NCBI GenBank assembly: GCA_036873755.1
Contig: JAVTVY010012634.1
Location: 248,001 to 312,000 of the forward strand
DNA length: 64,000 nt
Direction of reading: 5' to 3'
DNA from: Hanleya hanleyi
Taxonomy: Eukaryota; Mollusca; Polyplacophora; Lepidopleurida; Hanleyidae
Part shown: positions 26,231 through 42,173 of the stretch, piece by piece
Position numbering within the stretch: the first letter of the stretch is position 1
How the letters are laid out: the number at the start of each line of letters is the position of its first letter
Notes under the pieces: model-generated
Databases searched by the model: none
Seen by the model: only the letters and a program-made list of their open reading frames with translations
Told to the model about the DNA's origin: nothing
Made by a program: the position numbers and the translations under genes

Positions 26231-27792
26231 ACTACTGATTATCTCCAATTTAAAATGACAAGTGAATACTTGACTGACAAACTTCAAATAGCTAATGAGA
26301 TAAATAGTTTCTTTACAGATATCCCTACTCAACTGCAAAAGCTAATAATCTGGTTCATCATACCCCTACTGCAACACCTCACGAAAAACTGAAAAAACCC
26401 GAAAAACTTGACAAACCTGAATACAAGTAAAAGTACGGGACCTGACCTAATAGGACCCAAATCCTTCAAGTATCTTCTGGGATAATAGCTGAACCCCTCA
26501 CCCACATAATTAACATGAGCATTAAACATGATGAATTCCCAGAAAAATGGAAAATTGCAAAAGTCATTCCACTTTTCAAATCTGGTGATCCTGAGCTAGT
26601 GGAAAACTATAGACCTACAGTATATCTGTGCTTTCAACAGTTTCCAAAATCATTAAACGTCATGTCCATAACCATCTCTATCAGTATCTTTCAATTTTTG
26701 AATTACTATGTGATGCACAATCTGGTTTTCGAGCAAAGCACTCCTGTCAGAGTGCCTTAACGAAAATGGTTGAGTCCTGGTTACATTCAGTCGATAAAGG
26801 CCACTGATGTGCAAAGTTAGATTTTAAGAAGGCATTTGACACAGTAAACCATGATATTATTATAGAAAAATTCAAAATATATAAGCTTTCTGCAAAAACT
26901 ATGAACTGGATACAGTCCTATCTGTACAAAAGACAACAATTTGTGAATATTGAGAGTCACATGTCTGATCCTCTTCCCATTCAAGCTGGTGTTCCCCAGG
27001 GGTCCATCCTTGGACCTCTATTGTTTATTATCTATGCTAATGACATGCTACTATGTGATCTGTCAAGTACGATTGATCTCTATGCAGATGATACAACTAT
27101 TTACAACCATGTTGCCAATACCAAGGAGTTTGAAACACTCTTAGATCATGATGTGAAAGTTATCGAGGGATGGTGTCGTGAAAACAAAATGTACATAAAT
27201 ACGTCCAAATCTTCAATAATGGTTATGACAACAAAACGAAAGTCGAAAGAGAATGATTTAACCCTACATGTAAAAATTGACCAAAATGGACAAAATTTTA
27301 GGCCTCGTTTTTGATCAAAATCTTAGCTGGCATGACCATATTGATTCTGTTTGTCATAAAATTTCTGCCAACTTAGCATCCTATACAACAGACATAGGCA
27401 CCTCCTTAAGAAAGGAGTGAAGCTGTTATTCTACAATGCATATGTTCCCCCAAACATGGATTACTGTCTTACAATTTGGGGAGATGCAACTGCTTCTCAA
27501 ATGGACCGGGTTTATAAATTGCAGAAAAGAGCAGCAAGAATGATATTGAATGCTCACTATCTCACTCCAACCAAGACACTATTTCAAGAACTCAACTGGA
27601 CCAGTGTGCATGATAGACTAACTTACCAAAAGGCTGTCTTTATGTTCAAGATCATTCATAATCTATGCCCACCTTATCTCAACTGTCTTTTTCAATACGT
27701 AAATGATGTAACAAACAAAAACCTCAGATCAGCCGAAAACAACAAACTGTACCTTCCTCGACCAAGAACAAATTATCTAAAACAGAGCTTAA
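26231..27792 (+). pseudogene. Non-LTR ORF2, reverse transcriptase
   Basis: Fragments carry the RT blocks in order: KVIPLFKSGD and ENYRP, SGFRAKHSCQSAL, LDFKKAFDTVNHDII (near 26820), GVPQGSILGPLLF (near 26990), the catalytic LYADDTTIY (near 27080), then AAYVPPNMDYC-like and the LQKRAARMI segment (near 27520). The YADD box is intact. Stops and frameshifts occur near 26430, 26600-26760, 26805, 27310 and 27415. The order and C-terminal motifs match the CR1/L2/Jockey group. Cut at 27792 by a TTAA element. Confidence 0.9.
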
Positions 27793-30978: not shown

Positions 30979-33807
30979 TTAACATATAGAACTTAACCTT
31001 TTAAAAATCGGTCAAGGTCATTGATATTCTTCATTAGACTTTAGGTCCAGCCATAAGTGATATAAATTTGGACAATGTAGATATAATCTTTCATGGAATA
31101 TTGTACTAAATAAAATCTGTCCTGGATAAAATAGGTCAAGGTCAGCCATCTTCAGCATACCTTTGAAGCATCACCAGATGTACATATGGTATTAATTTGG
31201 AAAGCCTAGCTATATTCTTCATGTTAGACCATAATAAAGAGTATATGACCTTGAAAATATAGGTCAAGGTCAGTCAACTGGGATAGGCTTCTAGTCAATC
31301 ATGAGTTGCATAAGTAATATGAATTTGGAGACCCCAGCTTCAATCCTTAAAAAAATATAGCAAATACTATAATTTGACCTTGATAAAATAGGTCAAGGTC
31401 AGTCATCTTCACTACACCTCTGGACCATCGCCAGATGTATACATAGTATTAATTTGGAAAGCCTAGCTTTATTTCTTCATCTTATATCACAATAAACAGT
31501 ATATGACCTATAAAAAATAGGTCAAGGTCAGTCAACTGGGATAGACTTCTAGTCAACCACGAGTTGCATATATAATATGAATTTGCAGACCCTAGCTTCA
31601 ATCCTTCAAAAAATATAGCAAATACTAGAACTTGACCTTGATAAAATAGGTCAAGGTCAGTCATTTTTAATAGGCTTCTGACCCTTATCAATTCACAATG
31701 CCTGGCTATAATTCTTCTTGAGATATCGTGTTCACAAGAAAGATGGACAGACAGACAGACAGACAGACAGACGGACAGACGACGACAATACCCTTCGGGC
31801 AAAATTTGCCCGAGAGGTAATAAGAGCCCAAGGGGCTTCAATATACGCCCGTATATCTGTAATTACATTGGTCCGAATTTCAAGGTTGTTTAATAGCATG
31901 ATTCCAATTGGATGGTAGCTAGCAATCCAGAGAAAGGTCTACGAGTTTGTGCTTCTGAGAATGTAACATATATATTACATCTTATATTGAATGATAAACT
32001 AAAATGGGCTTAACTCTTGGTAACTGGTTGACCTTGAAACAAGAACCGAGAGCTCACATATCCCACATTGAAATCGACAATAGTCAAACACAAGAAAATA
32101 GTTTTCCTCCAAATGGATTCCTTTCAGGCAAGAGAATTTTTCATGAAGGAAGAAAAATGTGAAGAAAGTGATGAAGTAAACCTTTGTTCTGGAGTTAATA
32201 AACCATCTTCACAAGTTCAGGCAAATCCTAAATCCTCGCAGAGGGTTTAGCTGGACATTTTTGTTGATTCGAATGAGTTCTTGAGTCGATGCCTCTATTA
32301 TACAATCTCGTACATTTCATCCCCCATGCTTGTTTTGAATTAGCATGTTGGTATCCCAAGCCTGCTATTTTGCTTTGACTTGGTATGTCTATTTCATCCC
32401 TACATCAAAGCAGTTTGGCCCATGATGAAATCCAAACCAGTCACATCTCATACCTCGCAGTGGATTGGCATAATCAGCTGGTTTAGCACGTTCATTGATT
32501 GGTTTGATTTAAGGGAAACCCCTTGACCTATTCATATCCAGAACTAGTATGGGTAACTAACCAAGCCAGTGTATCGATCATAACAGATCGATTGATACAC
32601 TGGCTCGCAAGGAAACAGGTTCCCCGCGTTAAATTAGTAAATGTATGGTTTTCATTTCACAACAGTTTAACCAAATGTAGCATGTATCAAATATGGGAGA
32701 CAACTCCACAGGACAAATGCCATATACATGTAGGGAAGTCAACTCTGAATATTCCAACCTAACACATATAGTCAGCTATTAAACTTGATTCAGTTTTGGG
32801 AGACTGCAGCGACTCAGCTAGCGACCCATCTGCCCGTCAATTTGGATGGGTGACTTTTTCAAACAATCAAAAATGACGGGCAGGCGGGCGAGAACTCGTG
32901 ACGGGCGGAATAATCAGATTAATTCAATAAAATAGACGGGCAATATATTCAAATAGCCCCTTTAATCAGCATAAGCTAATTCTTCGTTTCATTATTAACA
33001 TCGTTGGCTTGTTTCACGTCTCCGCTTGTCGGGCAGCATGGCTAACATGCGTAGAATTTCCCCCAACTCGTGCTCCATGTTGATGGTGTTTAATACCGCT
33101 CCATTGCTCGCACCCGAGGGCTCCCGAATCGAGAATGAACTCGCGCAAGAGAACGCGAGACGCTATCAATCACCACTGGCACCGCGCCTTGCTAATGGCA
33201 GATGACAGCGACAGGAGCGGTTGGATGGGCACTTTCTGAATTCTGGCTAACACCCTGGGGGACTCTGACCTTGACCTTTGACAAATTGATCTCAAAGTGA
33301 ATATGGCTTCTCTTTGCCATGCGAGTAAGGTATACCCAAAGTTTGGTACCGATCCATACCTTGAAACTAGACATCGCATGGACAACAAATGTTAAAGTAT
33401 TAATGGACAGAACACAACATCCTATTACACGACCTCGTCTTCGACAGGCATGTGACTTTTAATGTGACTTTTAATGATTTCTTGATTTTGGGGTCACAGT
33501 GACCTTGACCATGTCCCTCTAATGTATCTACTGGCACAAAAAAAAAGTTTTTTTTAGTGATTTACTGATTTTGGGGTCACACTGACCTTGACCTTAACTT
33601 GACCTAAATTTTGGTACATGACACATCGTCTTCCTTCAATGGACACAAAAAAATCATGATTTTTATCAATTTCATGATTTTGGGGGTCACAGTGACCTCA
33701 ACCTTCAGCCTTGACCTACTTTTTGGTACGTGATGCCTCATGGCCCCCTAATGTATCTACTGACACAAAAAAAAAAAAATTTACAAGTAAATTTTCTGTT
33801 ATTAAGC

Positions 33808-33943
33808 TAAAACTTACCTCACTTCCACTCTTTGCATTTCTTGTCTACATGAAATATCACAGTAAGAATTTAAATGACACAGTTATCTCCCCTGCTAGTC
33901 ACCTGATTGCATAGCTACCCACAATTCTACTTCCTTCTTGTTC
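33808..33943 (+). repeat. DIRS terminal inverted repeat (3' side of element)
   Basis: About 135 bp starting 'aacttacctcacttccactc', the near-exact complement of 40066-40200. The outer 28 bases (33780-33807) are not shared with the other end, but have a partner in the internal complementary region. Confidence 0.9.
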
Positions 33944-33995
33944 CACTGCGATACATGGTCTGGATGTATCATAGCGGGGAGGTTGGGTGGGCATC

Positions 33996-34095
33996 ACTGG
34001 AAGTGAGGTAAGTTTTAGCTTAATAACAGAAAATTTACTTGTAAAATTTTTTTGTTATTTGCGCTGAAAACTTACCTCACTTCCACTCTTTGCAT
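33996..34095. repeat. DIRS internal complementary region
   Basis: The first half (aagtgaggtaagttttagct and onward to 34042) is the complement of the left extremity 33781-33830. The second half (gttatttgcgctgaaaactt and onward) is the complement of the right extremity 40160-40213. The two halves meet at a T-run around 34046-34052. In DIRS elements this region is thought to template completion of the ends and circle formation. Confidence 0.88.
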
Positions 34096-34392
34096 AGAAT
34101 GCCACCGTAAGGTAGGTGGGCAAACTGATACAATCCGTGGTAGTGATAAATGCCATACATAGTGACTAGTTCAAAGTAGAAATCATAGATCTTCTACCCC
34201 ACAGAGGATCCATGAAATCATACAACAGTAATAACCTGTATGCCTATGGTACACAGGGAACCTCTGTTGCTACTCTGACTTCAAGGCTGAGATGCAATAT
34301 ACGCCCCCCCCCCCTTTTTTTCGAAAGGGGCCGAGAGAAAAAATGCACTCACCCGCAAGCAGGGTTACAACTGTACGCCCGGACTTTTGTAG

Positions 34393-35646
34393 CTATATTG
34401 CTGGCCTCGGTCCCCCTGACACCCGCTGTGCGGTCACAAGTGGGCCGATAGAATAGAGGTCGTTACATGCCAACGTCATGTCCCGGAGATAGTAGGAGGC
34501 AAATGTCGTGTTTGACCTCCAGTAGCACGCCCTCATAATGTCAGTCACCGATCTGTTGGTCCATAGAGGCCATGATGCCGCTAATGCCCTAATCTCGTGA
34601 CCCGAAACGTTTACAAGCGCGGCTTGCCTATCAGTAGCCGTGGAGTACGCTAGCCGAATCGTATTTTTGAGCCAACTCGAGATAGTGTTTTTACTTATTT
34701 CTTGTTTGGCTTTGGGATCGAAAGGGATAAACAAACGCCTCCTTCCCGCTCTGATCTCCTCTGTACGATTCAGGTAACACGCAAGTGCCCGAACCGGACA
34801 CATTAACATGTCTGATTCAAGACCGGACGAAAGGAAATCAGATAAGGCTGGAATTGTGAACTCTCGAGATATGGAATCGTAGAGGGCTTGATTCTTGGCC
34901 ACAAACTCAGGAACCGTTGTGAGAACTACCTTGCTCCAGTTTCTAGAGTGTCTGATGTTCCTTTTATCGAGCGCATGCAGCTCTGACACCCTAGCTGCTG
35001 AAGCAAGAGCCAACAAAAACGAAGTTTTGTATGATAAATATTTTAGCTCAATAGCTTCTATTGGCTCGAAAGGTGGCTCTCCCAATTGCCGAAGTACTAA
35101 GGCTAAGTCCCACTTAGGTAATTTCGGAACAGCCGACTGACCAGTTATCTTGTATGACTTGATTAGTGCAGATAAGTTTGGATCAGTCGAGGGATTAATC
35201 CCAGTACCCAGTAGAATAGGTTGAGCAATGGCCGCTCTATAACCTTCTACCGTAGCAGGCACAAGGCCCCTATCCCTGAACAGGTACAATAGAAACTCTG
35301 CTATCTCAGGGATAGTTGCGCAGGATGGATTAATATCCCTCTCTCCACACCAAAGATCGAAGATTGCCCACTTTGAGTTGTATACAGCGGAAGAGGACGG
35401 TCGAATAGATTGTGCCATTCGGCGCCCAACCTCCGCTGAAAATCCCGCCTGAGCGAAGTGCTGCTTGAGCACTTGCACACGTGGTAGTGGAACAGTCCTG
35501 GTTGGCTGTGGAATGTCGACGTTCCGGGCTGGCGCAGTAGATTGTGCCATACCGGAAGCTGTCTTGGTACATCTACCAGAAGATCCAATAGTTCCGGGAA
35601 CCACGGCCTTGCTGGCCACCACGGAACAATCAGGTAAACGACACAC
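34393..35646 (-). CDS. Tyrosine recombinase of the DIRS element
   Basis: A 417-codon frame. The catalytic signature of the phage-integrase/tyrosine-recombinase fold is visible: Arg in ASAARVSELHAL (R219), HEIR with His350 and Arg353, and Tyr385/Tyr386 in TFASYYLRD as nucleophile candidates. The N-terminal ~55 residues overlap the Dam-like frame and may be untranslated; Met33 or Met77 are alternative starts. The enzyme would insert the circular DNA copy by site-specific-type recombination. It overlaps the upstream frame by ~346 nt. The frame is intact with a full catalytic set, so activity is possible as far as this ORF shows. Confidence 0.92.
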   Translation of the reverse strand: MCRLPDCSVVASKAVVPGTIGSSGRCTKTASGMAQSTAPARNVDIPQPTRTVPLPRVQVLKQHFAQAGFSAEVGRRMAQSIRPSSSAVYNSKWAIFDLWCGERDINPSCATIPEIAEFLLYLFRDRGLVPATVEGYRAAIAQPILLGTGINPSTDPNLSALIKSYKITGQSAVPKLPKWDLALVLRQLGEPPFEPIEAIELKYLSYKTSFLLALASAARVSELHALDKRNIRHSRNWSKVVLTTVPEFVAKNQALYDSISREFTIPALSDFLSSGLESDMLMCPVRALACYLNRTEEIRAGRRRLFIPFDPKAKQEISKNTISSWLKNTIRLAYSTATDRQAALVNVSGHEIRALAASWPLWTNRSVTDIMRACYWRSNTTFASYYLRDMTLACNDLYSIGPLVTAQRVSGGPRPAI

Positions 35647-36113
35647 ATGTGTTCGCGGATCTTCTTAAGTACCTTCGCTAGGATAGCTGGAGGAGGGAAC
35701 GCATATGCTACCATCCTTGACCAGTCCTGCGATAGTGCGTCCACTGCATATGCCGTCGGATCCGGAACCGGCGACATGAACAGGGGCAGTAGATTGTTGC
35801 GCCGAGTGGCAAACAGATCTATGTGTGGCATCTCCCAGACATGAGCTATTTGTTTTAGTATGTCTGGGTGAAGTTGCCACTCCGTGGGAATTATCTGATT
35901 CCGTCGAGAAAGCGAATCCGCTAAAACGTTCAGTACCCCCGGGATGTGCCTGGCCAACACCGATATGTTGTTGTCCCAACACAGACCGAAAAAGATTTCC
36001 GCTTGGCTTTGTAATAGCGGAGATCTCGTCCCCCCTGCTTGTTGATATAGGACACGACTGTTGTGTTGTCCGTCGCAACTAGCAGGTTCTTGTCGGTCAA
36101 TACGCTCACCCAC
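35301..36113 (-). CDS. RNase H C-terminus plus Dam-like domain of the DIRS element (-1 frame)
   Basis: Sense coding begins about residue 26, where this frame continues the RNase H/connection region (HIPGVLN at 56-62, ADSLSR at 65-70). It proceeds to the segment with DLFATR (99-104), YAFPPP (137-142) and WFPELL (171-176). That segment is characteristic of DIRS polyproteins and has been related to phage DNA adenine methyltransferases, with FPP in place of the usual DPPY/NPPY. It is offset by -1 from the RT frame at a run of six G (36029-36034). Its downstream end overlaps the recombinase. I treat it as part of the same polyprotein, separated by a frameshift. Confidence 0.8.
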   Translation of the reverse strand: MGERIDRQEPASCDGQHNSRVLYQQAGGTRSPLLQSQAEIFFGLCWDNNISVLARHIPGVLNVLADSLSRRNQIIPTEWQLHPDILKQIAHVWEMPHIDLFATRRNNLLPLFMSPVPDPTAYAVDALSQDWSRMVAYAFPPPAILAKVLKKIREHMCVVYLIVPWWPARPWFPELLDLLVDVPRQLPVWHNLLRQPGTSTFHSQPGLFHYHVCKCSSSTSLRRDFQRRLGAEWHNLFDRPLPLYTTQSGQSSIFGVERGILIHPAQLSLR

Positions 36114-37486
36114 GTGCGGATGGCATGTGTCACTGCCATAAACTCCAACACGTTTATATGGTACGAGCGTTCCTCAATTGTCCATAACCCGGATGTCGAC
36201 TTGGACTCAAGGTGGGCTCCCCATCCTTCCATAGATGTGTGCGTGAACAGGTGATGTGACGGACGAAACGGAAGTAGGGACACACCTGGCATAACGTTGA
36301 GTGGATCCAGCCACCATTGGAGGCATTGTTTGACTAGCGGTGTTACAGGTATCCACGGATTCAACTGCCTTTCGACCCATTGATGATTGAAGTAAATCAT
36401 TAAGGGACGAAGCTGCAACCGCCCTCTTGGTGTTACGTCCTGTGTTGACGTCAAGAGGCCGATTATCGCAGCAAAGTGTAAAGCCCTGGCCTGAGACAAC
36501 TTGAGGAACTGAGGTATCTTCGTCGTTATCTTTAGCCATCGATCTTCTGGGGGTTTGGCGAGAGCTCGTAGCGTATCGTATTCCACCCCCAGAAATTTGC
36601 GCCTTTGCGAAGGAGTCAGCTCTGATTTCTCTTCGTGTGGGATGTATCCCACAGAAGTCAATATCCTTAAGACAAACTGGGTGTCTAGGATTAACTGCTC
36701 CTTGCAGGCATTCCTTAGCAGGGAGTCGTCGATATAAAAGTGGTACTTTATACCTAGACTGTGCAGGAATTGTGCCACTGGTGTAAACACTCGTGTGAAC
36801 ACCCAAGGGGAAGTGGATAGGCCGAACGGAAGCACTTGAATTTGGAAGCGTCGTTTGCCGACCATGAATCTCAAGTACTTCCTGTCCCCCGGATGTATCG
36901 GGATATGCAGGTATGCATCCCTTAAATCCAGAGAAGTCAGCCATTCCCCTTGTCCGAGTACCGACCGTATAGACCGGAAGGACTCCATGCGGAAGTGTGG
37001 CGGTGGAGTGAGGTAGTCCTTGTTGAGGCGCTTTAGGTTTATAACCATGCGCATCTCGGACGTGTCTTTCTTGGGGACCAGAAAGACCGGCGAATAGAAC
37101 CCGGGTGACGTGTCCGAAACCGGAAGCTCTATTACAGCTGCCTTCTCTATCAGCTTGTCCACAGAGGACTGTATCGCTGATAGATGACCCGTTCGTAATG
37201 GTATACGAGACGGAAGGGGATGAGCAGTCAAGGGAGGAAGCGTGTCGAACAATAGGCGATAGCCGTATCTGATCGTTCGAATGACCCACGCTTCCGTCCC
37301 GATCCTTATCCAGTTCCTCCAAAACAACTGCAGCCTTCCCCCTACCGGAAGGTCTAGTTGCTGGGGAACTGGAAACGTTATGTCTCGGTGTTCCCGCCAT
37401 ACCGGAAGCCACCCGGTACGGCCCGAGACATCAGGAATCCTTCTTTGACTGCTTAGATTTCCCCTTACCCTGCTTCTTATGGCCAT
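35930..37486 (-). CDS. Reverse transcriptase and RNase H of the DIRS element
   Basis: A 518-codon frame. RT: LDLRDAY with the first catalytic Asp (186-192), LPFGL (219-223) and the YIDD box (251-254). RNase H: the position normally occupied by the first catalytic Asp (TDAS) reads THTS, with His416 (codon at 36239-36241); Glu448 (NVLEF) and Asp473 (ATDNT) are present. The frame leaves sense at residues 484-486 (G-run) and the last ~32 residues are off-frame; the correct continuation is in the -1 frame. The start lies inside the Gag-like ORF (56 nt overlap). It copies element RNA into DNA in the host cell. Confidence 0.92.
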   Translation of the reverse strand: MAIRSRVRGNLSSQRRIPDVSGRTGWLPVWREHRDITFPVPQQLDLPVGGRLQLFWRNWIRIGTEAWVIRTIRYGYRLLFDTLPPLTAHPLPSRIPLRTGHLSAIQSSVDKLIEKAAVIELPVSDTSPGFYSPVFLVPKKDTSEMRMVINLKRLNKDYLTPPPHFRMESFRSIRSVLGQGEWLTSLDLRDAYLHIPIHPGDRKYLRFMVGKRRFQIQVLPFGLSTSPWVFTRVFTPVAQFLHSLGIKYHFYIDDSLLRNACKEQLILDTQFVLRILTSVGYIPHEEKSELTPSQRRKFLGVEYDTLRALAKPPEDRWLKITTKIPQFLKLSQARALHFAAIIGLLTSTQDVTPRGRLQLRPLMIYFNHQWVERQLNPWIPVTPLVKQCLQWWLDPLNVMPGVSLLPFRPSHHLFTHTSMEGWGAHLESKSTSGLWTIEERSYHINVLEFMAVTHAIRTWVSVLTDKNLLVATDNTTVVSYINKQGGRDLRYYKAKRKSFSVCVGTTTYRCWPGTSRGY

Positions 37487-39188
37487 AGGTCGATACTCTT
37501 GGCTCTAAAGAAGTAGGCGCTTGGTTATGCTGTTGGCCGGAAGCACCCTTATTAGCCTTGGAACTAGGCGGGTTCTTCTTAGCCTTCTTCGCCTTTGGAC
37601 CCGACCCGGAAGCCATAGGTCTTTTAGACGAAGCACCGGAAGCAACTGACCTGTCATGCTCTATACGATCCATTTCAGGTCGAACTTCGGCAACAGCATC
37701 ACCAAACAGTAAAGAAGGAGCCGTAGATGTCTCTAGTAGACTCCTCTTTACAGCTTCCGGTGTGTAACTATGCATAAAAGGAATGAAGGCCTTTCTCCTT
37801 AAATACACTAGCATAGAAGATAGATAGGCATTGTGTACCAGTAAATCTTCTACAGCACCGGAAGCAATCTTCTGGTAGTCAAGAACGAGGTTTATACCCT
37901 CCTGTAACTGTTCTTGACTCTCCGCGCCCGACAGCGAAAATAAACCATCCTTTATGGCTTTAAGAAACCAGTCAAGGTGATTCGTAATCGCCACTCCTTG
38001 TCGAGCAGTTTCCTCAAGTACTGCGGCCTGTTTGTTCGTGCAAGGAACATCCGGATTACTAGGCACTTTAGTATTGCTAGAGCATAAATACTGAAAGTCG
38101 CCGTTCACCTCTGCAGACCGGAAGCTAAACGGTGAGTTATGTACGCCGTAACTTCGTGTGTTTGGCTTCTGTACTGGGAACGGACCAGAAGATCCTGCAG
38201 GGCGGAAGCGAGCTTTTGGTCTCAACCTTATAGCACGTTCCTCTTGCGTAGTGGGTTCTGCTAACGTTCTATGGAATAAATGGCAGATAGAATGAATAGC
38301 AGTTGAGGCCGGAAGCGTGGTAGCCGACCTCGTAACCCGGTTTGACTCTCCTGATTCAGTTTCAATATCCCCCGCATGTGGGACCGGAAGCTGCATATCA
38401 GGAATTAAGTCATAGATGCCGGAAATAAGTTCATAATATTTCCTAGCATCCGGATCAGTATTGGTAGGTTCATTCAATTCAGATCTACCGTACTGGTCCC
38501 TATCCACTTCCATAGCTTCCGGGGCTTCCTGCCAGGAGGGAGTATTGGAAGGGATAGTCCTCGACAAATTAGCTTCCGGTTTCCTAGACTGTTCAGTCAA
38601 AACCGGAAGCAGTGGCGTACTACTTCGGAATTGACTGGTCATCATCTCTCTCAATTCCTTCATTTCCTCACGTTGCTGTTCCATACCGCGCAGTATGGCA
38701 GCCAAAGTGGGATCAGTCACTTGAGAGTGGACCGGAAGCAAGGCCTGACGAGGTGTGTTCACACTCAAGGACCCTCCAGCTGGACGTGAGCACGGCCACT
38801 GTAAAGGTCGGTGAACAGGCATACGAGGTCGTAAACCGGAAGCACGTATAGGAGGACGCATCATACGATAAATTCCCGGTCCCGTACCTCGAACACCACC
38901 GGAAGCAGATATCTGACCTAAGCCACGCAAGGGCGAAGGTAGACCAGCAACCGGATGCCGCATAATTTGAACTGGTCTGATTGAGGGTTCTTGATAACGC
39001 AACTCAGACACAGGCAAAAAATTTGACATATTATGGGTACCTGAATACATACCATACTGCCGTTGTTGCGGGAACCTTAATCTCTGGTGGCCCAGAAGGC
39101 TCGTAGACACAAACGTCTCGGCAAGGGAACGAGGAAGGCCACCAGAGTAACCGGAAGCAGGTTGAGAAAATTCAGACAAACCGGAAGC
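37402..39188. promoter_or_regulatory. Cluster of 17 CCGGAAGC octamers
   Basis: Exact copies start at 37402, 37537, 37606, 37636, 37753(r), 37858, 38118, 38309, 38384, 38515(r), 38572(r), 38603, 38732, 38836, 38899, 39151 and 39181 (r = complement). Two more lie at 37120 and 35552. Fifteen of the 19 are preceded by A, giving ACCGGAAGC, an ETS/GABP-type core. Codons covered differ (ASG, LPV, FRS, and PEA in reverse), so the repetition is at the nucleotide level. Function unknown; it may be a protein-binding or RNA-recognition site. Confidence 0.75.
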
Positions 39189-39917
39189 AGCAGTTAAAGG
39201 CGTAACTGAGCGACCGGGAAGTCCAGGCCTCGACAGCGTCGAGGAAGGTATTTTCCCAACCCCGGACCCAAATGAAAATTTAACATTAGGCTCCTCACTG
39301 GTGCTGCCCAAGTTTTCATAATCATAAGTTGACTCCGATCGAGCGATCGGAGTCCCCTGGCTTTCCCACGCTAAGCCTGGGTCCGTCACCGATTTCCCTT
39401 CATCGTCACATCCAGGCGTCCGCTCAATAGGAATCTCCACTTCCACAGTTGTCGTAGTACCAGATTCCATATCTTCGATTACTCCTTCCACTTGTACCAA
39501 CCGGGTCGATCCCTTACCTGATTGACCCTTCACCTGGCCTGAAATGGAAGTATCGTGAGCGGAGGGGGGCGTTTGTTTATCTTTATTTACATCCAATAGG
39601 CTGACTAATGAAGACCCAGCTACTGAACTAACAAACCCCCTAGACTCCTCGCCTACATTAGTACGAGGAGACTGTGCTACATATGTCTCGTTTGCGAGAT
39701 TGGCAGGCATAACAACATTATTTCCTTCGTTAGCTGCCAGAGAACCGGCCAGATACACCTGGAATATGCCGGGCGCCCACACAATACACTCTTCACAGGC
39801 CGTGTCCCATGTACAGATTCTACCCTGGCGGCATGGCGGACACACTGAGTGAAGGTCATAACTAGGCTTGTCACCTCCACAAGAAATGCATGACATTTGA
39901 GACATATTTTGAGCCAT
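37431..39917 (-). CDS. Gag-like protein of the DIRS element
   Basis: An 828-codon frame starting at ATG 39917. The N-terminus is a compact Cys cluster (C10, C13, C26, C29, C35, C41, C44, H23) that could bind zinc. The middle is Pro/Ser/Gly-rich and probably disordered. The region 500-720 is helical, with a long conserved-looking stretch (LVHNAYLSSMLVYLRRK). The C-terminus is Lys-rich (PKAKKAKK, KKQGKGKSKQSKK), suitable for RNA binding. Position and size fit the DIRS ORF1 capsid-like protein. The coding DNA is studded with the octamer CCGGAAGC in all frames. No stop or frameshift. Confidence 0.85.
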   Translation of the reverse strand: MAQNMSQMSCISCGGDKPSYDLHSVCPPCRQGRICTWDTACEECIVWAPGIFQVYLAGSLAANEGNNVVMPANLANETYVAQSPRTNVGEESRGFVSSVAGSSLVSLLDVNKDKQTPPSAHDTSISGQVKGQSGKGSTRLVQVEGVIEDMESGTTTTVEVEIPIERTPGCDDEGKSVTDPGLAWESQGTPIARSESTYDYENLGSTSEEPNVKFSFGSGVGKIPSSTLSRPGLPGRSVTPLTAASGLSEFSQPASGYSGGLPRSLAETFVSTSLLGHQRLRFPQQRQYGMYSGTHNMSNFLPVSELRYQEPSIRPVQIMRHPVAGLPSPLRGLGQISASGGVRGTGPGIYRMMRPPIRASGLRPRMPVHRPLQWPCSRPAGGSLSVNTPRQALLPVHSQVTDPTLAAILRGMEQQREEMKELREMMTSQFRSSTPLLPVLTEQSRKPEANLSRTIPSNTPSWQEAPEAMEVDRDQYGRSELNEPTNTDPDARKYYELISGIYDLIPDMQLPVPHAGDIETESGESNRVTRSATTLPASTAIHSICHLFHRTLAEPTTQEERAIRLRPKARFRPAGSSGPFPVQKPNTRSYGVHNSPFSFRSAEVNGDFQYLCSSNTKVPSNPDVPCTNKQAAVLEETARQGVAITNHLDWFLKAIKDGLFSLSGAESQEQLQEGINLVLDYQKIASGAVEDLLVHNAYLSSMLVYLRRKAFIPFMHSYTPEAVKRSLLETSTAPSLLFGDAVAEVRPEMDRIEHDRSVASGASSKRPMASGSGPKAKKAKKNPPSSKANKGASGQQHNQAPTSLEPRVSTYGHKKQGKGKSKQSKKDS

Positions 39918-40065
39918 TTTTACGCTGATAACTTAGAGAATACTTCCCAAAGGACTTCTTGCAGAAAATCAGACGTCTGAGGTAATCCAACTGTGAGTAG
40001 TTTCGCTAGAAAAGGCACTTTTTCACGGAGTTGACAATGTTTACTTCCAGCCCTACGAAGCAGTA
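39918..40065 (-). other. DIRS 5' leader
   Basis: Between the inverted repeat and the Gag start lie ~150 bases without a clear TATA box. DIRS transcription is expected to start in or near the terminal repeat. Nothing further can be read from sequence. Confidence 0.4.
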
Positions 40066-40200
40066 GAACAAGAAGGAAGTAGAATTGTGGGTAGCTATGC
40101 AATCAGGTGACTAGCAGGGGAGATAACTGTGTCATTTAAATTCTTACTGTGATATTTCATGTAGACAAGAAATGCAAAGAGTGGAAGTGAGGTAAGTTTT
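40066..40200 (-). repeat. DIRS terminal inverted repeat (5' side of element)
   Basis: Complement of 33808-33943 with at most a few changes. The outer bases 40201-40213 (cagcgcaaataac) have their partner in the internal complementary region, which places the element's 5' border at about 40213. Confidence 0.9.
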
Positions 40201-40432
40201 CAGCGCAAATAACAGTGCTTTTTAAAGATTTCTTGATTCTGGAGTCACAGTGACCTTGACCTAAATTTTTGTACATGCAAAATCGTCTCTCTCCTTAATA
40301 TATCAATGGATGCAAAAAATCATGATTTTTAACAATTTCATGATTTGGGGGTCACAGTGACCTTGACCTTTGACCTTGATCTACATTTTGGTATGTGACA
40401 ATTCATTTCCCCCTATTGAATCCACTCACAAA

Positions 40433-42173
40433 CAAGGGCCCAAGGGGCTTCAATATACGCCCGTATATCTGAAATTACATTGGTTCGAATTTCAAGGTTG
40501 TTTAATAGCCTTGATTCCAATTGATCTAGCAATCCAGAGAAAGGTCTACAATTTTTTGCTTATGAGAATGTAACATATATCACATCTTATATTGAATGAT
40601 AAACTAAAGTGAGCTTAACTCTTGGTAACTAGTTGACCTTGAAGCAAGAGCTGAGAGCTCACATATCCCACACTGAAATCAACAATAGTCAAACACAAGA
40701 AAATAGTAGTTTTCCTGCAAATGGATTCCTTTCAGAGGAGAGAATTTTTCATGAAGGAAGAAAAAAGTGATGAAGTAAACCTTTGTTCTTGAGTTAATAA
40801 ACAGGTGTGAAGCTCATAAAGGACTCCTCTCCCCATTAAATTAGTAAATGTATGGTTTTTATTTCACAACAGTTTAACTAAATGAAGCGTTTCAAACATG
40901 GGAGACAACTCCACAGGACAATACCATATAAGAACCTCGAATATTCCAACAATATTCCAACACAAATGTGTTGGAATATTGTTGGAATAATTGTCAGCTA
41001 AGCTTGATTCAGTTTTGGGGGACTGCGACATAGAGCTTTGACAAATTGATCTCATATGTGTGGCTCCACTTCGCCATGCGAGTAAGGTATACTCAAAGTT
41101 TGGTACCAATCCATACCTTGAAACTAGAGCTATCGCATGGACAACAAATGTTAATGGATGAATGACCAGAACGCAACATCGCATTACACGACCTCGTCTT
41201 CGACAGGCATATGAAAATGTGACTTTTAATGATTTCTCACAGTGACTTTGACCTTGACCTCATTTTGGTACACAACACATCGTCTTCCCTCAATCTATCA
41301 ATGCACACAAAAAATCATGATTTTTAATGATTTCCTGATTTTGGGGTCAGTGACCTTGACCTTTGACCTTGGCCTAAATTTTGGTACATGACAAACCGTC
41401 TCCCCTCAATTTCTCAATGGACACAAAAAATCATGATTTTTAACAATTTCACGATTTTGGGGTCACAGTGACCTTGACCTTTGACCTTGACCTACATTTT
41501 GGTATGTGACACATTGTGTCCCCCTAATGTTTATACTGACACAAAAAATGTTATTTTTAATAATTTCCTAATTTTGGGGTCAGTGACCTTTGACCTTGAC
41601 CTAATTTTGGTATGCATCACTTCACTTCCGTCTATTGAATCCACTCACAAAAAATTAGAAATTTTTAACGATTTCCTGATTTTTCGATCACACTGACCTT
41701 TGACCTCTGACCTTGACCTACATTTAATATGCAACACATCGTTCCCCCCAGGGCATCCACTCACCAAAAATTAGAACTGTAGATAGAAAACTGTCAACGA
41801 TCAATGATTTCCTGATTTTTGGCAACAGTGACCTTTGACCTCTGACCTCGACCTCAATTTTGGTACGCGACACATCGTCTCCACCTGGCGTATCCACTCA
41901 CAAAAAATTGCAACTGTGGATAGAAAACGTTCACAGATATAGACCAGACACGAACACTTGATTTCCTATTTTTTAGGCCAGTGACCTTTGACCTGTGACC
42001 TCGACCTTCATTTTGGTATGCGACACATCGTCTCCCCGTAGGGTATCCACTCACCAAAAATTGGAGCTGTGGATAGGAAACTGTCCCAGATATAGACCGG
42101 ACACGAGAACCGGACAGACGGACGGACGGAAACCGCCATCATATAATACGTCCGCCTTTTGGGCGGGCGTATA
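40433..42173 (+). repeat. Microsatellite-tailed tandem array, family F, inner copy
   Basis: It starts 'caagggcccaaggggcttca' with ATACGCCCG and ends with GGAC microsatellite, then cgtccgccttttgggcgggc and GTATAAA. The host unit reads 'ccactcacaaa' before and 'aattagaaattttta' after, matching the intact unit at 41640 ('cactcacaaaaaattagaaa'). The insertion point is therefore an A-run in a sister copy of the same family. Units contain TGACCTTTGACCT direct repeats (41583 and later). Confidence 0.85.

What the first reader, a model, noticed from the sequence alone, without database searches (positions are those of the whole stretch)
37402..39188. Octamer CCGGAAGC recurs 17 times in 1.8 kb of a DIRS gag gene, independent of reading frame
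Seen directly: exact copies at the 17 listed starts (three in reverse orientation), plus 37120 and 35552. Fifteen of 19 are ACCGGAAGC. An 8-mer on either strand is expected about 0.05 times in this span. The copies encode ASG, LPV, FRS or (reverse) PEA, so protein selection cannot explain them. Spacing is irregular (30-260 bp), so tandem duplication is also unlikely. ACCGGAAGC is close to the ETS/GABP binding core. Inference: the element carries an internal array of binding sites, as an enhancer for a host ETS factor or a recognition site for its own Gag or RNP.
Basis: partly seen in the sequence, partly recalled or inferred. Interest (0 to 1): 0.82.

Follow-up and report, generated by a model that had tools for sequence, protein, structure and literature searches.

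The report
DNA-motif array inside retrotransposon coding sequence
A mobile element, probably of a mollusc, carries about 20 copies of one short DNA word hidden inside its protein-coding genes; a distant sister family in the same genome has such an array too, mostly at other places, and the word looks like a docking site for a common class of animal gene-control proteins.

Summary
Confirmed: 19 exact CCGGAAGC in a DIRS element (about 33780-40214, minus strand), 17 of them in 37402-39188. Codon-preserving shuffles of gag give mean 1.4, at most 6 of 3000, against 16. All 27 further copies examined keep 17 or 18 of 18 sites; near copies and 85-89% relatives keep octamers more often than control windows (196/203 and 27/41). 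Sister family B in the same genome (gag 32.5% identical) also has ACCGGAAG as its outstanding word (12 in 4 kb, expected 0.13), in gag mostly at other positions and most often ending in T, the ETS consensus. Four other DIRS families of this genome and four distant DIRS loci lack the array. Variants that ETS proteins tolerate are enriched (8 vs 1.1; 9 vs 0.8); untolerated ones are not. Best reading: an overlapping code, a dispersed array of host ETS/GABP-type sites written into gag-pol, probably an internal enhancer or chromatin-opening region. Shown: array, DNA-level nature, inheritance with turnover. Inferred: reader and effect. Against: strand bias 28:5, no CCGGAAGT in the window copy, no excess conservation at fourfold sites among young copies.

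The parts
33780..40214 (-). DIRS-type retrotransposon, family A (outer ends approximate)
   Evidence: inverted terminal repeats, RT and weak recombinase matches, frames
33809..33949 (.). terminal inverted repeat at the 3' end of the element
   Evidence: 99% complementary to 40060-40200
33998..34095 (.). internal complementary region: 33998-34061 complements 33764-33827 (94%), 34053-34095 complements 40172-40214 (100%)
40060..40214 (.). terminal inverted repeat at the 5' end of the element
37431..39932 (-). gag frame (stop to stop, 833 codons) with 16 octamers
   Evidence: no Pfam match
35930..37504 (-). pol frame (RT, part of RNase H); continues in another frame at 35301-36173
34393..35664 (-). 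tyrosine recombinase frame
   Evidence: weak PF00589 match, E 0.0083, below cut-off
37120..39188 (.). the dense array: 18 exact CCGGAAGC and 1 CCGGAAGG
39181..39188 (+). octamer
39151..39158 (+). octamer
38899..38906 (+). octamer
38836..38843 (+). octamer
38732..38739 (+). octamer
38603..38610 (+). octamer
38572..38579 (-). octamer, reversed
38515..38522 (-). octamer, reversed
38384..38391 (+). octamer
38309..38316 (+). octamer; 8 of 28 rows carry a synonymous one-base variant that lacks it
38118..38125 (+). octamer
37858..37865 (+). octamer
37753..37760 (-). octamer, reversed
37636..37643 (+). octamer
37606..37613 (+). octamer
37537..37544 (+). octamer
37402..37409 (+). octamer in the pol frame; present in A', absent in B
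37369..37376 (+). no site here, but A' (5 of 5 loci) and B (2 of 2 loci aligned) have one at this place
37345..37352 (+). CCGGAAGG variant; present in A', absent in B, which spells the same amino acids otherwise
37120..37127 (+). octamer in pol, shared with A' and B (B ends in T)
36974..36981 (+). CCGGAAGG variant in pol, shared with A' and B
35552..35559 (+). isolated octamer in the recombinase frame

Best explanation
Two DIRS families of this genome (A, the window's, and B) carry a second code inside gag and the start of pol: a dispersed array of ACCGGAAG[C/T/G] sites that suits the double-stranded DNA-binding consensus of class I ETS factors (GABP-like). SHOWN: the array exceeds what protein and codon usage give, is inherited, is kept above control windows, and has changed positions between families. 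INFERRED: a host ETS factor binds the sites and opens or enhances transcription of the element from its ITR promoter, as Ste12/Tec1 sites inside the Ty1 coding region do. NOT SHOWN: binding, transcription, direction of effect. The number below is for an ETS-type DNA-binding array acting on transcription or chromatin; that the array is real and selected at nucleic-acid level I hold at about 0.95.
For: 16 octamers in gag against codon-shuffle maximum 6 (or 8) of 3000. Three frames, both strands. Near copies keep 196/203 non-ascertained octamers against 84% for frame-matched gag windows (6 of 3000 simulations reach it); A' keeps 27/41 against 33% (33 of 3000). Sister family B: ACCGGAAG 12 in 4 kb of L067 against 0.13, last base T7 C3 G2; gag of B 7 against codon-shuffle mean 0.43, 0 of 1000. 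ETS tolerance: tolerated neighbours 8 vs 1.13 (A), 9 vs 0.79 and 11 vs 0.77 (B), others at background (2 vs 2.85; 4 vs 1.86; 2 vs 1.85) (table from PMC2787013). GGAAGT is still the top shared 6-mer of A and B once CCGGAAG is masked. Genome has 16 Ets-domain matches over cut-off. Antisense sites kept 58/59 in near copies.
Against: Window copy has 0 CCGGAAGT though it is the strongest ETS word. 28 of 33 CCGGAAG sites are sense-oriented (P 7e-5 vs 1:1; 0.017 vs the 2:1 that coding alone gives in gag A). In 28 rows octamer columns at fourfold sites vary as much as others (3/30 vs 37/409). In gag A alone ETS-tolerated variants are not in excess (2 vs 1.04). Antisense sites are kept in only 4 of 9 cases in A'. 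The tolerance table is human and would also suit another reader centred on CGGAA.
Confidence: 0.5

Rival explanations
1. RNA-level motif: the sense transcript carries CUUCCGGU many times, read by an RNA-binding protein for Gag packaging, nuclear export of an unspliced RNA, or translation.
For: Sense bias 28:5; A and B share exactly CUUCCGGU in sense while the base before it varies.
Against: Antisense copies exceed codon shuffles in gag A (3 vs mean 0.48, 11 of 3000 reach it) and are kept 58/59 in near copies. Octamers are not exposed in predicted folds (mean unpaired 0.25 vs 0.36). The enriched variants follow a DNA-binding tolerance table.
Confidence: 0.2
2. Recognition sites for an element-encoded protein (the cysteine-rich Gag N-terminus or the recombinase) on the element's own DNA, RNA or replication intermediate.
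For: The array belongs to the element and is inherited with it; Gag begins with a cysteine-pair cluster.
Against: DIRS families C1, C2 and the loci L074, L075 have a similar N-terminal cysteine cluster but no array. The terminal repeats, where a recombinase would act, have no octamer. The match to a known host-factor consensus would be a coincidence.
Confidence: 0.13
3. A chromatin boundary, silencer or antisense/internal promoter read by some other host factor rather than an ETS activator.
For: Known designs: a silencing and insulator region in Ty1 GAG (PMC11258251, abstract), an antisense promoter in mouse L1 ORF1 (PMC3985663, abstract), 12 Su(Hw) sites in gypsy (PMC7168160, passages). Orientation bias suits a directional device.
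Against: The word and its tolerated variants fit ETS; nothing here shows silencing or transcription.
Confidence: 0.14
4. No function for a reader: spread of a 9-bp unit by repeated small insertions, or a codon and tripeptide habit in a disordered protein.
For: ACCGGAAGC has no stop in any frame on either strand, so insertion would be tolerated; ASG is the commonest reading (8 of 16).
Against: Three frames and both strands, codon shuffles, little flank information; pol sites lie in ungapped alignment and neighbouring states differ by substitution; one gag site is polymorphic by one synonymous base (8 of 28 rows).
Confidence: 0.03

Closest known systems
Ty1 Ste12/Tec1 sites downstream of the ATG (Saccharomyces)
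   Same: Host-factor binding sites inside the coding region of a retrotransposon, acting on its transcription (PMC4619828, passages)
   Different: A few sites (two Tec1 sites in the elements named there), an LTR element, another factor; here 18-21 near-exact sites in all frames with turnover between families
gypsy Su(Hw) insulator (Drosophila)
   Same: Array of some 12 host-factor sites carried by a retrotransposon (PMC7168160, passages)
   Different: 350 bp in the 5' UTR, degenerate sites; here 2 kb of coding sequence, near-exact sites, another word
Ty1 GAG silencing/insulator region and mouse L1 ORF1 antisense promoter
   Same: Regulatory DNA inside a retrotransposon gene (PMC11258251 and PMC3985663, abstracts)
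   Different: The abstracts describe an inverted repeat and a promoter, not an array of one word
DIRS1-like elements, with Dictyostelium DIRS-1 promoters in both ITRs
   Same: Same superfamily and architecture (PMC3266345, section read; PMC4482531, abstract)
   Different: No internal motif array in what I read of them
ETS/GABP redundant promoter sites
   Same: Same word family; CCGGAAGc is second to CCGGAAGT (PMC2787013 Table 2, passages)
   Different: Those are host promoters; here a mobile element's genes, with C (family A) or mostly T (family B) last

Membership tests
DIRS1-like retrotransposon | reverse transcriptase (and RNase H) frame | tested here: met
   RVT_1 E 9.7e-24; RT_RNaseH E 4.2e-05, just below its cut-off
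DIRS1-like retrotransposon | tyrosine recombinase frame | tested here: inconclusive
   PF00589 E 0.0083, below cut-off; catalytic residues not checked
[quoted passage not shown]
   I1, I2, I3; definition as in PMC3266345
ETS-type binding-site array | CCGGAA core with a following G and preferred preceding A | tested here: met
   A before the octamer in 15 of 19 (A) and before CCGGAAG in 12 of 12 (L067)
ETS-type binding-site array | T preferred at the last position (CCGGAAGT) | tested here: inconclusive
   window copy 0 of 21 (not met); L067 7 of 12 (met)
ETS-type binding-site array | variants follow ETS tolerance | tested here: met
   with the exception of gag A alone (2 vs 1.04)
ETS-type binding-site array | host has ETS-domain genes | tested here: met
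   16 PF00178 matches on 15 contigs
ETS-type binding-site array | binding and effect on transcription | not testable with these tools
   needs a bench assay
gypsy-type Su(Hw) insulator | Su(Hw) motif and enhancer blocking | not tested
   compared by anatomy only

The most novel reading that the evidence does not exclude
A clade of DIRS retrotransposons keeps an overlapping code: some 12-21 ETS-type sites written through gag and the start of pol in every frame and on both strands, held in number while positions turn over between families with 32% gag identity, so that the element carries its own host-factor-responsive control region inside its genes. Shared pol sites suggest that the array is older than the A-B split.
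Probability: 0.5. Interest if true: 0.8.

Novelty: new variant of a known kind. Interest (0 to 1): 0.7.

Why it matters
Little that I found tells how DIRS elements are switched on; the one study met describes ITR promoters in an amoeba (PMC4482531, abstract). If this array drives transcription, it gives a direct handle on DIRS activity in animals, a case of a dense regulatory code overlapping a protein code with visible turnover, and a test of how a genomic parasite ties itself to one host factor. Families A, B and C of one genome are a natural comparison set.

Tried and rejected
Protein repeat or codon habit: rejected. Tandem or insertion origin: little flank information, substitution states seen. 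RNA structure: many windows of the element fold better than shuffles on both strands, with or without octamers, and octamers are not exposed. Helical phasing: none seen. A general DIRS feature: not found in C1 and C2, L074 and L075 (partial gag) or four distant loci in prokaryote bins, L001-L004; L003 has a weak 6-copy CGACAAGC, looked at only. Gag homologues in the protein collection: none among 7987 and 2122 candidates. Viral contigs: none. Pairing with 18S rRNA: considered from memory only; as recalled, the sense motif has the same sense as the rRNA, so dropped untested. Clusters of ACCGGAAGT and a search with P0001 in the own genome did not complete.

Limits: close copies are not independent; control windows are matched for frame only, not for composition or protein constraint. 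One search used 27 copies plus the window (self copy L005 and gapped L021 and L029 left out). One search included sites by which loci had been found; removes them and is the one relied on. Family B was reached through a locus (L036) picked by the octamer pattern; L067-L070 came from a protein search, and 2 of the 12 sites of L067 correspond to the pair in L036. The C families are represented by one locus each.

Full report
What is there. [quoted passage not shown] Its RT has 1617 hits among 7996 scored candidates; of the 120 listed, the animal names given are Haliotis and Gigantopelta, so the host is probably a mollusc; the 2.48 Gb genome itself is unnamed. 54 gag copies at 97-100% protein identity were scored out of 6738 candidates, 52 of 54 without internal stop: a young, abundant family, here called A.

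The observation. CCGGAAGC occurs 20 times in the window, 19 of them in the element; chance mean 0.55 for the whole window. 15 of 19 have A in front (0.91 bit); other flanking positions carry at most 0.30 bit. 16 copies lie in gag, 13 sense and 3 antisense, encoding ASG (8), LP (4), FR (1) and PEA (3). All 8 ASG and all 3 PEA of gag are spelled with the octamer, and 4 of 8 LP. Permuting synonymous codons gives mean 1.44 and at most 6 of 3000; a version that keeps the codon-junction dinucleotide gives mean 2.64 and at most 8. One-mismatch neighbours number 10 against 4.2 expected, so the word is sharp. None lies in the first 744 nt of gag (P 0.0035 under uniform placement); the array runs into the start of pol.

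Copies and relatives in the same genome. In 27 further A copies, 17 have all 18 sites of the stretch and 10 have 17. Including the window, 3 of 128 octamer columns in gag vary against 118 of 2374 others; at fourfold sites there is no difference (3/30 against 37/409), which speaks against strong recent constraint. The spaced pattern ACCGGAAGC-N0-30-ACCGGAAGC occurs 778 times in the genome against 26 for its reversed control, some of it in GC-rich repeats that are not DIRS; several spacers show octamers where the window has none. Loci found that way include near copies (about 95-99%) and 85-89% relatives (A'). After removing sites by which loci could have been selected, octamers are kept in 196 of 203 cases in 23 near copies against 84% for frame-matched gag windows (6 of 3000 simulations reach it) and in 27 of 41 cases in five A' loci against 33% (33 of 3000). 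Antisense sites are kept in 58 of 59 cases in the near copies and 4 of 9 in A'.

A sister family. Family B (L067-L070; gag of L067 32.5% identical to A over 784 aligned residues) also has ACCGGAAG as its outstanding word: 12 in the 4 kb of L067 against 0.13 expected, ending T7, C3, G2. In gag of L067 it occurs 7 times against a codon-shuffle mean of 0.43, reached by 0 of 1000. In the gag alignment none of the 7 B sites falls in the same column as an A site; one or two lie close enough to correspond. In pol, 37120 and 36974 are shared by A, A' and B; 37369 is in A' and B but not in A; 37402 is in A and A' but not in B; 37345 is in A and A' but not in B, where the same amino acids are spelled otherwise. 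So the array seems older than the A-B split and its sites come and go. Other DIRS families of this genome show no array: C1 0 and C2 2 CCGGAAGN, L074 and L075 0 CCGGAAG (partial gag). The distant loci L001-L004 have 2, 2, 2 and 3 CCGGAAGN at 0.9-1.7 expected.

What reads it. CCGGAAGT is the ETS consensus, and CCGGAAGc is the next most enriched octamer in ETS-bound promoters (33 and 23; PMC2787013 Table 2, passages); a study of GABP alpha also treats the T-to-C variant (PMC4555227, passages). I used that table as a test. Neighbours of CCGGAAGT with enrichment of 4 or more (other than CCGGAAGN) are in excess in A (8 vs 1.13), A' (6 vs 0.82; 5 vs 0.58) and B (9 vs 0.79; 11 vs 0.77), while neighbours below 4 are not (2 vs 2.85; 1 vs 1.98; 0 vs 1.40; 4 vs 1.86; 2 vs 1.85); C families, distant loci and the rest of the window show nothing significant, L003 being nearest with 4 vs 1.37, P 0.051. 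Within gag A alone the tolerated class is not significant (2 vs 1.04, 281 of 1000), in gag B it is (7 vs 0.89, 0 of 1000). With CCGGAAG masked, ACTTCC (GGAAGT) is the top shared 6-mer of A and B (10 and 10 against 2.5 and 2.2), and not in excess in C1 (2) or clearly in C2 (4 against 2.1). The genome has 16 Ets-domain matches over the cut-off on 15 contigs. Two facts do not fit simply: the window copy has no CCGGAAGT, and 28 of 33 CCGGAAG sites in A and L067 are in sense orientation (P 7e-5 against 1:1; P 0.017 against the 2:1 that synonymous shuffles of gag A give). An RNA reader would explain the bias but not the kept antisense copies or the tolerance profile; octamers are also not exposed in predicted RNA folds.

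How it most likely works. ITRs of DIRS-1 act as promoters in Dictyostelium (PMC4482531, abstract). Retrotransposon control regions inside genes exist: Ste12/Tec1 sites downstream of the ATG of Ty1 (PMC4619828, passages), a silencing and insulator region in Ty1 GAG (PMC11258251, abstract), an antisense promoter in mouse L1 ORF1 (PMC3985663, abstract); and arrays of host-factor sites exist, such as the 12 Su(Hw) sites of gypsy (PMC7168160, passages). I infer that the A/B array recruits an ETS factor to the first kilobases of the transcription unit and keeps it open or enhances it. Binding, effect and direction remain untested.

Novelty. Host-factor site arrays in retrotransposons are known. A dense array of near-exact sites written into coding sequence in all frames, with turnover between families, in DIRS elements, was not met in the listings of my paper searches, which cover open-licence papers only and were seen as listings except for the papers named.

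Noticed in passing
37200-37500: Strong predicted RNA structure at the gag-pol junction (z -8.5 sense, -7.7 antisense), where pol lies in another frame than gag.
   Followed up: no
35301-36173 and 35930-37504: The pol frame of this copy breaks within RNase H and goes on in another frame.
   Followed up: no
32000-33455 and 40605-41214: Stretches on the two sides of the element are about 90% alike in the same orientation, as if it lay between or within two copies of a repeat.
   Followed up: no
33809-34085 and 40183: The ITR and the internal complementary region hold GGAAGTGAGG four times, in a GGAAGTGAGGTAAGTTTT context that also resembles a 5' splice site (recalled).
   Followed up: no
26808-27314: Remnant of another retroelement with an RT match (E 1.2e-24) on the plus strand.
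   Followed up: no
own genome, contigs C1218 and C4079 (L049-L051): Closely spaced ACCGGAAGC pairs in GC-rich repeats; the three C1218 loci show no DIRS match.
   Followed up: partly
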